DNA from: Aureispira sp.
GTDB lineage: Bacteria; Bacteroidota; Bacteroidia; Chitinophagales; Saprospiraceae
DNA: 36,345 nt
Assembly: GCA_024222455.1 (NCBI GenBank)
Contig: JAAEPD010000466.1
Coordinates: 1-36,345, forward strand
Direction: 5' to 3'
Positions 5,402 to 27,455 of this stretch are shown piece after piece (position 1 is the stretch's first letter; each line of letters starts with the position of its first letter). The notes under the pieces are model-generated. The model ran no database searches. It was given only the letters and a program-made list of their open reading frames with translations, and was not told the origin of the DNA. Made by a program: the position numbers and the translations under genes.

Positions 5402-5743
5402 ATGATTAATTACAATAATAAAAAATTTAGACCTATAGCTAATACCGAAAATGGAGAGACCTCAGCAGAAACTATTTTTGAGTATAAACAAGAAGGGAAT
5501 ATCTTAACTTCGAGCTACAAAGGAGGAGATATTCTTAAAGGCCATTTGATTGGTTTAGTAGATGATGATGGATGCATCCAAATGACTTATCATCAGATTA
5601 ATAAAAATAAAGAGATTATGACTGGTGTCTGCCGTTCTACTCCTGAGTTGTTGGAGAATGGCAAAATAAGGCTCCATGAAGTATGGCAATGGACTTCTGG
5701 TGATCACTCTAAAGGCAATTCAATTATCGAAGAGATTGATTAA
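5402..5743 (+). CDS. Small conserved lipocalin-like protein (often mislabelled n-acetylglutamate synthase)
   Basis: 113 residues, no signal peptide or membrane segment, predicted mostly beta. It belongs to a family I recognise from Bacteroidota and Firmicutes by blocks such as FEYKQEGNILTSSYKGG, MTYHQIN and RLHEVWQW-SGD-SKG. Databases often carry the name n-acetylglutamate synthase for it, but there is no GNAT acetyltransferase motif and the length is wrong, so I do not accept that function. It lies 18 bases after the channel gene and 12 before the SRPBCC gene, probably in the same transcript. Confidence 0.8.
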   Translation: MINYNNKKFRPIANTENGETSAETIFEYKQEGNILTSSYKGGDILKGHLIGLVDDDGCIQMTYHQINKNKEIMTGVCRSTPELLENGKIRLHEVWQWTSGDHSKGNSIIEEID

Positions 5744-6193: not shown

Positions 6194-7078
6194 ATGGAAC
6201 GTATAATTTCGGATGCAGAACTTATCCTAAATCCAGATAAGAGTATTTATCACTTAAATCTAAAGCCTGAGCATATTGCTCCAACAGTGATAACAGTAGG
6301 TGATCCTAACCGAGTAGCTAAGGTGTCTAAATATTTTGATGAAATAGAGTTTGAAACGAGCAAAAGAGAGTTTGTAACACATACTGGTAGAATTGGTGAT
6401 AAGCGATTGACAGTGATTTCTACAGGTATAGGTACTGATAATATAGATATTGTATTGACAGAGTTGGATGCTTTGGTTAATATAGATTTTGATACTCGAC
6501 AAGCTAAAACAGAACATACTTCTTTAGATATTATCCGTATTGGTACTTCTGGAGGATTGGGGGAATCTATTCCTTTGGAGAGTTTTGTAGTGTCTGAATA
6601 TGCTGTAGGTATAGATGGTTTGATGTTGTTTTATCAAGACAATAAATCTAAAGAAGAAGCTGCTTTATTAAAGGATTTGTCTAGCTATTTACAAGACCGA
6701 GATTTTGCTTTTCCTATACCATTATATGTAGCTAAAAGTGGGGCAGATTTATCTGAAAAATTTAGTGGGGATGAGTGGTTGAGAGGTATTACGATAACGG
6801 CTCCAGGATTTTATGCGCCTCAAAATCGTTATTTGCGTGCTTTGCCTACTATAGATGATATGTTTTCTGTGTTGGATGATTTTTCTTATCAAGGAATGCC
6901 TATTTCTAATTTAGAGATGGAAACTTCTGGGATATACGGTTTGGCCAATACTTTGGGGCATCAAGCACTTTCTCTGAATGGAATACTAGCCAATAGAGCA
7001 ACAGGTGGTTTTGTGAAAGATCCTTATAAGTTGGAAGAGTCTCTTATTAAAAAGGCTTTGGAGATTATTGTTGCTTAA
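6194..7078 (+). CDS. Nucleoside phosphorylase (uridine phosphorylase-like)
   Basis: Cytoplasmic enzyme splitting a nucleoside with phosphate to base and ribose-1-phosphate. The 294 residues are close to the family length. The N-terminal GDPNRV (phosphate site), the central IGTSGGL, and NLEMETSGIYGLA near the C-terminus (Glu-Met-Glu, ribose binding) are hallmarks of the PNP/UDP phosphorylase family; the EMETSGIY wording favours uridine-type enzymes. Base preference cannot be fixed by eye. It is the last gene of the tight channel run (9-base gap upstream). The co-transcription looks conserved in style, but no pathway link is obvious. Confidence 0.87.
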   Translation: MERIISDAELILNPDKSIYHLNLKPEHIAPTVITVGDPNRVAKVSKYFDEIEFETSKREFVTHTGRIGDKRLTVISTGIGTDNIDIVLTELDALVNIDFDTRQAKTEHTSLDIIRIGTSGGLGESIPLESFVVSEYAVGIDGLMLFYQDNKSKEEAALLKDLSSYLQDRDFAFPIPLYVAKSGADLSEKFSGDEWLRGITITAPGFYAPQNRYLRALPTIDDMFSVLDDFSYQGMPISNLEMETSGIYGLANTLGHQALSLNGILANRATGGFVKDPYKLEESLIKKALEIIVA

Positions 7079-26565: not shown

Positions 26566-26641
26566 GCAAGGGATAGCTCAAACTTGGAAGAGCGCTTGAT
26601 CGGCATTCATGAGGATGTGGGTTCGAGTCCCACTCCCTTGC
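26566..26641 (+). tRNA. tRNA-like gene with anticodon position reading GGC (Ala?), atypical
   Basis: A cloverleaf folds: acceptor CAAGGGA/TCCCTTG plus an extra outer G-C pair (26566 with 26641), D arm GCTC/GAGC, T arm GTGGG-TTCGAGT-CCCAC. The anticodon arm is imperfect (CTTGA with TCATG, one U-U mismatch) and the 7-base loop TCGGCAT has C instead of U at position 33. Anticodon would be GGC. The outer G:C pair resembles tRNA-His, which contradicts an Ala reading. No CCA is encoded. It may be a divergent or decaying tRNA. Confidence 0.55.
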
Positions 26642-26645
26642 CTAT

Positions 26646-26718
26646 AGAGCGATAGTTCAACTGGAAGAACACCTAGTGGCCAACTAGGAGGATGTGGGTT
26701 CGAATCCTGTCTCGCTCT
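26646..26718 (+). tRNA. tRNA-like gene with anticodon position reading GCC (Gly?), atypical
   Basis: Acceptor AGAGCGA/TCGCTCT, D arm GTTC/GAAC, a perfect 5-bp anticodon stem CCTAG/CTAGG and T arm GTGGG-TTCGAAT-CCTGT (mostly wobble pairs). The loop TGGCCAA has G at position 33 and would read GCC. One extra base separates the T arm from the acceptor. It shares the D loop (TGGAAGA) and variable/T region (AGGATGTGGGTTCGA) with its neighbours. No encoded CCA. Confidence 0.5.
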
Positions 26719-26738
26719 TCTATCAAAATAATGGTAAT

Positions 26739-27017
26739 ATGAATAATGATTTATTAGACGATGGTAATATCCCTAAAGCACCACCCAAACCGAATAAAAT
26801 CCTATCAAGAGGATTATTACTCTTGGGCTTGGGGATATTAGCTTATAAAATCAATTCGTCCGAAACAGAATTGGTGCGTTGGAGTTATCTGTTTGTACCT
26901 TTGTTAGTAGCAGGTTGGGCTGCAGCTATAACAACACCCCAAAAAGCAATTTTGATAGGCATTGTTACTGTAGCTATAGTATTTGTCTTTTATCAAACCT
27001 TGTGGAGTGCTCTTTAG
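26739..27017 (+). CDS. Tiny membrane protein embedded between tRNA genes
   Basis: 92 residues from ATG 26739-26741; an earlier in-frame ATG (26694) lies inside the tRNA-like gene and would give an implausible N-terminus. The protein has a charged, Pro-rich N-terminus and three hydrophobic segments (about 26-38, 47-63 and 69-90). No family recognised. It starts 20 bases after one tRNA-like gene and ends 7 bases before the next, so one transcript would carry all of them. Confidence 0.6.
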   Translation: MNNDLLDDGNIPKAPPKPNKILSRGLLLLGLGILAYKINSSETELVRWSYLFVPLLVAGWAAAITTPQKAILIGIVTVAIVFVFYQTLWSAL

Positions 27018-27024
27018 ATATAAT

Positions 27025-27098
27025 AGGGCGGTAGTTCAATCTGGAAGAATACCTGACTGTCACTCAGGAGGATGTAGGTTCGAGTCCTATCCCGCCCT
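27025..27098 (+). tRNA. tRNA-Asp(GUC)-like gene
   Basis: Acceptor AGGGCGG/CCGCCCT, D arm GTTC/GAAT, anticodon stem CCTGA/TCAGG, loop CTGTCAC with a normal U33 and anticodon GTC (Asp), and T arm GTAGG-TTCGAGT-CCTAT. As in the neighbour, one base is extra between T arm and acceptor. Compared with standard tRNA-Asp the D loop is unusual (TGGAAGA) but the anticodon arm is normal. No encoded CCA. The most convincing tRNA of the three. Confidence 0.75.
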
Positions 27099-27455
27099 GC
27101 CTTTTTATAAAAGAAAACCAGCAACCGTGGGCATGGTTACTGGCCTAAAAAACGCATGGAATATCACTACTCTTTCTATGTACTAGACATACTGTAGACT
27201 TACTTTATAGAATATTCCATGCTAAGTGAATGAAGTCTACATCAATGTTATTATAGTGTGTTTTATAGTGTTGTGTAATCTATCTCCGTTTCTTATAATA
27301 CAAATATAGACCATCGATTAGATTCCCACAAAAACGAATCTAAGTTTCTTTCCTTAGCAAAACCATAATTTGTGATGTTTGTTTTGCCTATTAATTGTTG
27401 ATGTACAGGGATATAGATGTTATGTTGATTTCCTTAGGAAATATATAAAAAAAAA
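27099..27455. other. Structured intergenic region after the tRNA genes
   Basis: No gene over this stretch; a short open frame across the Asp tRNA-like gene is a shadow. It holds a hairpin CCAGCAACC/GGTTACTGG (27118-27143) and two interleaved inverted repeats: GCATGGAATAT (27154-27164) with ATATTCCATGC (27212-27222), and TGTAGACTT (27193-27201) with AAGTCTACA (27233-27241). The second repeat starts inside the loop of the first and ends outside it. From 27245 on it is plain AT-rich sequence. Confidence 0.5.

What the first reader, a model, noticed from the sequence alone, without database searches (positions are those of the whole stretch)
26566..27098. Cluster of three related, atypical tRNA-like genes
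All three share an unusual D loop (TGGAAGA) and variable/T region (AGGATGTnGGTTCGA), so they derive from one ancestor, yet read as GGC, GCC and GTC. Two break the near-universal U33 rule (C33 and G33), the first has an outer G:C pair like tRNA-His and a mismatch in its anticodon stem, and two have an extra base before the acceptor 3' strand. They may be non-decoding tRNA-like RNAs, decaying copies or an expanding family with altered anticodons.
Basis: partly seen in the sequence, partly recalled or inferred. Interest (0 to 1): 0.6.

Follow-up and report, generated by a model that had tools for sequence, protein, structure and literature searches.

The report
Three odd tRNA-like genes, possibly decoys
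A Bacteroidota genome carries three intact but odd tRNA-like genes that may not take part in ordinary protein synthesis; similar genes in other bacteria sit near RNA-repair genes and differ in their anticodon loops, which suggests bait for enzymes that cut tRNAs.

Summary
Three tRNA genes lie at 26566-27099, with C33, G33 and U33, a shared D loop and variable region, and an extra C on the 3' acceptor side in two. They look intact: 63 of 64 stem pairs hold, and the Gly-like and Asp-like genes differ by 11 stem changes with no pair broken. Other Ala-GGC, Gly-GCC and Asp-GTC genes exist in the genome, so the trio is redundant. Two close genomes there differ at 4 of 21 anticodon-loop bases and 0 of 202 others (p = 6e-5); ordinary tRNAs between genera show the reverse, 1 of 77 against 64 of 767. 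The window's genome also has the rare Rnl2 ligase (5 of 395 genomes) and RlaP (33 of 395), but not beside the trio. I read the trio as non-decoding tRNA-like RNAs, most likely decoys for anticodon nucleases. The link to the repair-island genes is suggestive only; expression is untested.

The parts
26566..26642 (+). tRNA-like gene 1 (Ala-GGC by ARAGORN): 8-pair outer stem with G:C at the end, C33, one U-U mismatch in the anticodon stem
   Evidence: ARAGORN and Rfam; pair inventory
26600..26606 (+). anticodon loop TCGGCAT of gene 1 (C33)
26646..26719 (+). tRNA-like gene 2 (Gly-GCC): 7-pair acceptor, extra C at 26711, G33, three G-U pairs in the T stem
26677..26683 (+). anticodon loop TGGCCAA of gene 2 (G33)
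26739..27017 (+). 92-residue open frame between genes 2 and 3, no Pfam family found; similar frames in 2 other of 248 family genomes, without tRNA genes near
27025..27099 (+). tRNA-like gene 3 (Asp-GTC): 7-pair acceptor, extra C at 27091, U33 kept
27057..27063 (+). anticodon loop CTGTCAC of gene 3, the same as in the Asp gene on C127 (L055)

Best explanation
The three genes most likely make non-decoding tRNA-like RNAs that act as bait for anticodon nucleases. Shown: tRNA-shaped genes with intact stems, unusual anticodon loops (C33, G33) and an 8-base strand between T stem and position 73 where tRNAs normally have 7, in a genome that also holds an Rnl2 RNA ligase and RlaP genes. Inferred: the extra base and the missing U33 keep the RNAs out of translation, nucleases cut or bind their loops in place of the working tRNAs, and the cut bait is repaired or lost at no cost. 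The model comes from look-alike genes in Tenacibaculum sp. M341 and relatives, which lie among RNA-repair genes and change mainly in the anticodon loop.
For: Stems: 63 of 64 pairs standard; Gly-like against Asp-like: 11 stem substitutions, 4 pairs changed on both sides, 3 on one side, 0 broken of 21, reached by 0 of 20000 random placements. Redundant anticodons. The contig C261 relative has encoded CCA, an 8+5 pair stack in the predicted fold and a strong hairpin followed by a T run just downstream. The signature search over genome contigs gave 4 places, one of them Tenacibaculum sp. M341, whose gene also has C33 and an 8-pair stem, features not in the query. In five genomes these genes flank one SDR gene; Rnl2, RlaP, RtcB lie near. 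G333 against G554: 4 loop changes in 21 sites, 0 in 202 (p 6e-5), while the SDR gene is 95.6% identical; ordinary tRNAs: loop 1 of 77, rest 64 of 767. Own genome: Rnl2 (5 of 395), RlaP (33 of 395).
Against: The trio is not beside any repair gene: no island protein matches the window at E 1e-5, own Rnl2 stands alone, and the two RlaP contig stretches hold no tRNA. Homology with the Tenacibaculum genes is weak: window Gly and Asp are nearest to each other, then to other tRNAs; only the C261 gene has the M341 gene as nearest. The signature also occurs in ordinary 7-pair tRNAs of 3 viral contigs. Loop excess is absent in tl2 over four genomes (0.14 against 0.17), and the G333-G554 test was chosen after seeing the data. 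G663 shows no Rnl2 and G696 (short contig) no ligase; tl1 of G696 has a broken acceptor. The Asp-like gene keeps U33. No promoter or terminator evidence at the trio, and its predicted folds are not clean cloverleaves.
Confidence: 0.35

Rival explanations
1. Recently dead or dying extra tRNA genes, left by a duplication or a lost mobile element; the C33, G33, U-U mismatch and extra bases are decay.
For: Lower Rfam scores than 11 other own tRNA genes; redundant anticodons; no conserved neighbours in the two relatives with the same small open frame; same DNA not found in 99 other family genomes beyond tRNA-like matches; in G696 a related gene does look broken.
Against: 63 of 64 pairs hold; 11 stem changes between two copies without a broken pair. 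No phage genes among the window proteins scanned with Pfam, and phage and plasmid records give only single-tRNA matches, no record covering 80%.
Confidence: 0.3
2. Ordinary but divergent extra tRNAs that still decode, with tolerated departures at position 33 and at the stem junction.
For: ARAGORN and Rfam accept all three. The Asp-like gene keeps U33, C38, GUC and G73, and the Gly-like one C35, C36 and U73, which are identity elements as I recall them (for the bases).
Against: Two of three lack U33, against 1 of the other 103 own tRNAs. One extra base between T stem and acceptor in two of three. The Ala-like gene has no G-U at its third pair in either register, a recalled requirement for AlaRS. 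Other genes with the same anticodons exist.
Confidence: 0.25
3. Aminoacyl donors for a non-ribosomal pathway (wall, lipid or peptide ligases).
For: Non-decoding tRNAs of this kind are known (recalled). The Asp-like and Gly-like genes keep likely identity bases.
Against: No such enzyme among the window proteins scanned with Pfam; three different isotypes would be needed.
Confidence: 0.06

Closest known systems
tRNA-like genes of the Tenacibaculum sp. M341 locus (L107) and its counterparts in G333, G554, G663, G696 (described here)
   Same: D-loop GGAAGA and variable GGATGT in the M341 gene; 8-pair outer stem; non-U33 in several; two or three genes interleaved with protein genes
   Different: They sit by an SDR gene and, in four of five genomes, RNA-repair genes; the window trio does not. 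tl3 has a 7-pair stem.
Phage tRNAs with anticodon-loop changes that evade anticodon nucleases (PMC10264068, passages seen)
   Same: Changes placed in the anticodon loop of a tRNA body
   Different: Those are taken to replace cut host tRNAs and to decode; here two of three lack U33 and no phage setting was found
YrlA / Y RNA with tRNA-like domain in RNA-repair operons (PMC7790460, passages seen)
   Same: A tRNA-like RNA tied to RNA repair; that paper raises the idea of a competitive inhibitor of the nuclease
   Different: Not the Rfam YrlA family: 23.5 bits against a cut-off of 69, and an ordinary tRNA-Lys pair scores higher, 34.7
tRNA-Sec (8+5 stack) and tRNA-His (G-1:C73)
   Same: Extended acceptor-T stack; outer G:C pair in gene 1
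   Different: No long variable arm, no UCA or GUG anticodon; Rfam reports tRNA, not tRNA-Sec

Membership tests
Decoding tRNA | cloverleaf accepted by tRNA models | tested here: met
Decoding tRNA | U33 | tested here: not met
   C33 and G33 in genes 1 and 2, met in gene 3
Decoding tRNA | 7+5 pair acceptor-T stack without extra base | tested here: not met
   extra C in genes 2 and 3; gene 1 can be read as 7 pairs with G-1:C73 or as 8 pairs
Decoding tRNA | aminoacylated and used by ribosomes | not testable with these tools
   needs tRNA sequencing and acid northern blots
tRNA-Sec | long variable arm and UCA anticodon | tested here: not met
   5-base variable region, GGC/GCC/GTC
tRNA-His | G-1:C73 with GUG anticodon | tested here: not met
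   gene 1 has G-1:C73, shared in the own genome only with three His genes of 106, but reads GGC
YrlA Y RNA | Rfam RF02553 score over cut-off | tested here: not met
   23.5 against 69; control 34.7 in an ordinary Lys pair
Phage counter-defence tRNA | lies in a phage or prophage | tested here: not met
   no phage family among the window proteins given to Pfam; no similar phage record beyond single tRNAs
Repair-island tRNA-likes (this report) | beside RNA-repair genes | tested here: not met
   no island protein in the window
Repair-island tRNA-likes (this report) | orthologs differ mainly in the anticodon loop | not testable with these tools
   the own genus has one genome, so the trio has no orthologs to compare

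The most novel reading that the evidence does not exclude
Bacteroidota carry a class of host-encoded, non-decoding tRNA-like RNAs whose bodies are kept while their anticodon loops are diversified, as bait matched to a changing set of anticodon nucleases and backed by an RNA-repair kit (Rnl2, RlaP, RtcB); the window trio and the C261 gene are members that have moved away from the island.
Probability: 0.28. Interest if true: 0.85.

Novelty: new variant of a known kind. Interest (0 to 1): 0.52.

Why it matters
Phage tRNAs are thought to dodge anticodon nucleases. If cells themselves keep tRNA bodies with variable anticodon loops beside their RNA-repair genes, that is a host-side counterpart which could be tested directly, and it would warn against counting every tRNA-shaped gene as part of the decoding set. 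I found no description of this in the seven paper searches I made, which cover open-licence papers only.

Tried and rejected
YrlA membership was rejected. Phage or plasmid origin by similarity was not supported. An Endomicrobium hit of the signature search looked like an 8-pair gene but reads as an ordinary tRNA-Ala with G3-U70; two other hits (L106, L108) gave no ARAGORN gene. Synteny through the small open frame led nowhere. The three other Rnl2 loci found in the class (G964, G1010, G851) hold no tRNA gene. Model R1 does not separate the trio cleanly from other tRNAs; it was built from the sequences it then ranks. A first pattern found nothing because I had set the spacing wrong.

Association of tRNA genes with RlaP loci: I fetched 17 loci from 17 of the 32 other genomes with RlaP, my own choice and not at random. 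At least one ARAGORN tRNA: 6 of 17 against 3 of 20 control stretches (p 0.15); at least five: 4 of 17 against 0 of 20 (p 0.036). Suggestive only. Several loci are shorter than 20 kb.

Control that I first used for loop conservation, 38 of 38 tRNA-Asp genes with the same loop, is biased: those loci were found with a query that contained the loop CTGTCAC. I rest on the comparison instead, whose loci were not found with such a query; there the tRNAs come from different genera and are few.

Full report
What is there. The window is contig C466, whole, of a 7.76 Mb assembly in 683 contigs. It is a Bacteroidota by its proteins: GldN, SprB repeat and type IX secretion tails. ARAGORN and Rfam find three tRNA genes, all on the plus strand: 26566-26642, 26646-26719 and 27025-27099, with a 92-residue open frame between the second and third.

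Structure. Read by hand, each gene has the four stems of a tRNA; 63 of 64 pairs are standard, the exception being the U-U in gene 1. Genes 2 and 3 have 7 acceptor pairs and one extra C between the T stem and the acceptor 3' strand. Gene 1 can be read as 8 pairs, or as 7 with a G-1:C73 pair; in the own genome only three tRNA-His genes share that pair, of 106 tRNAs. In one search, 7 of 106 own tRNAs were flagged as fitting better with one extra 3' base: genes 2 and 3, the C261 gene, one truncated-looking gene on C25, and three others (a Lys, an Asn and an Arg gene) that I think can also be read with 7 pairs. Predicted minimum-energy folds give a complete cloverleaf for the C261 gene and the two M341 genes, but not for the trio, whose outer stems form while inner arms are rearranged; z-scores are -2.9, -2.0 and -1.0.

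Relation of the three. Without the anticodon loop, Gly-Asp scores 47.5, Asp-Ala 41.5 and Ala-Gly 35.5; of 3365 other own-genome pairs with different anticodons, 3, 18 and 173 reach these scores. The Gly-Asp pair differs by 11 stem substitutions with no broken pair (4 pairs changed on both sides); 20000 random placements never did that and broke 7.5 pairs on average. So the genes were under structural selection for most of their divergence. The genome has other Ala-GGC, Gly-GCC and Asp-GTC genes.

Others like them. In the own genome, a fourth gene on contig C261 (Arg-CCG by ARAGORN) shares the D loop and GGATGT, has encoded CCA and an 8-pair outer stem, and is followed by a hairpin and a T run. 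The trio's full signature was found exactly only at its own three sites among 395 phylum genomes; 100 genomes have a site within 2 mismatches, and of the sites listed only those in G333 and G554, besides the window's, carry TGGAAGA. In genome contigs a looser form hit 4 stretches: one in Tenacibaculum sp. M341, one ordinary tRNA-Ala, two without an ARAGORN gene. In viral contigs it hit 3, in tRNA-Trp, tRNA-Trp and tRNA-Arg genes with normal 7-pair stems. So the signature alone does not define a family.

The Tenacibaculum locus. In M341, G333 and G554, three tRNA-like genes (tl3, tl1, tl2) flank one SDR gene in the same order; G663 has tl1 and tl2, G696 has tl3 and a tl1 with an imperfect acceptor. 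Nearby are an Rnl2 ligase and a RING_SCO0854-like gene, below that family's cut-off, in M341; Rnl2, two RlaP, RtcB and an RF-1-domain gene in G333, with Rnl2, RlaP and RtcB matches in G554; a DUF434 gene and a distant RtcB match in G663; only the RING-like gene in the short G696 contig. Of 116 genomes drawn from G333's genus, only G333, G663 and G696 gave the long match; the other matches listed are tRNA-sized or shorter. G554 was not in that draw.

Loops. tl1 loops are CCAGCAA, CTGTCAC, CAATCTC, CTACCAC and CTGTCAC; tl2 CTGCCAA, ATGCTAA, ATGCCAA, ATGCCAA; tl3 CAGCAAT, CCGGCTA, CCGGCTA, CAGCAAA. Mean divergence loop against rest: tl1 0.40 and 0.16, tl3 0.45 and 0.11, tl2 0.14 and 0.17, so tl2 shows no excess. 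Between G333 and G554 the genes differ at 4 of 21 loop sites and at 0 of 202 others, p = 6e-5, with the SDR gene at 95.6% nucleotide identity; this pair was picked after the difference had been seen. Ordinary tRNAs of three genomes from three genera differ at 1 of 77 loop sites and 64 of 767 others. An earlier control, 38 of 38 equal Asp loops, is biased by the query and I do not rely on it.

Repair genes in the own genome. Rnl2 is rare, 5 of 395 class genomes, and the own genome and G333 are two of the five. RlaP is in 33 of 395, own genome included with two matches. In the own assembly none of these lies beside the trio, and the fetched Rnl2 and RlaP stretches hold no ARAGORN tRNA. The other three Rnl2 loci hold none either.

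Reading. I commit to non-decoding tRNA-like RNAs that act as decoys for anticodon nucleases, at 0.35. Shown: intact tRNA-shaped genes with odd loops and an extra base; loop-centred change in look-alikes near RNA-repair genes; repair genes in the same genome. Inferred: shared descent with those look-alikes, exclusion from translation, cleavage as bait. Rivals are recent decay (0.3) and ordinary extra tRNAs (0.25). Identity elements, the U33 rule and the Levitt pair are recalled.

Papers. PMC7790460, PMC7824862 and PMC10264068 were seen as passages. PMC7790460 raises the idea that the tRNA-like YrlA could be a competitive inhibitor of an anticodon nuclease. PMC7824862 describes RlaP and RNA ligases beside phage tRNAs and a TROVE protein with a tRNA-like partner. 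PMC10264068 argues that phage tRNAs carry loop changes that make them insensitive. Other papers were seen as search listings only.

Noticed in passing
L107:6549-6675 and 5413-5543 (minus); L240:6859-6978; L236:13518-13629 (minus): tRNA genes with inserts of a few dozen bases in the anticodon arm at RNA-repair loci; in M341 and G956 the gene lies upstream of a RING_SCO0854-like gene, and GGTCAA-N-ACTTACTT occurs in the G956 insert and near the M341 genes.
   Followed up: partly
L186:5291-5346 and 6486-6555; L185:14798-14851 (minus): Further tRNA-like pieces in the repair island, one upstream of Rnl2 that seems to lack an arm.
   Followed up: no
own contig C364 (L033): 25 ARAGORN tRNA genes, some Lys, Glu and His with long variable arms, next to two TROVE/Ro60 genes; a similar array in G247 (L146) has no TROVE gene that I recognised in its listed frames.
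   Followed up: partly
own contig C25 (L031, L032): 30 kb with 25 divergent tRNAs, most with encoded CCA, an RtcB match, a NAPRTase-family gene, a phosphoribosyltransferase gene and a macro-domain gene; phage-like in my judgement.
   Followed up: partly
   Followed up: partly
own contig C104:13136-14113 (L110): Rnl2-type RNA ligase standing alone, no tRNA within the 19 kb fetched.
   Followed up: yes
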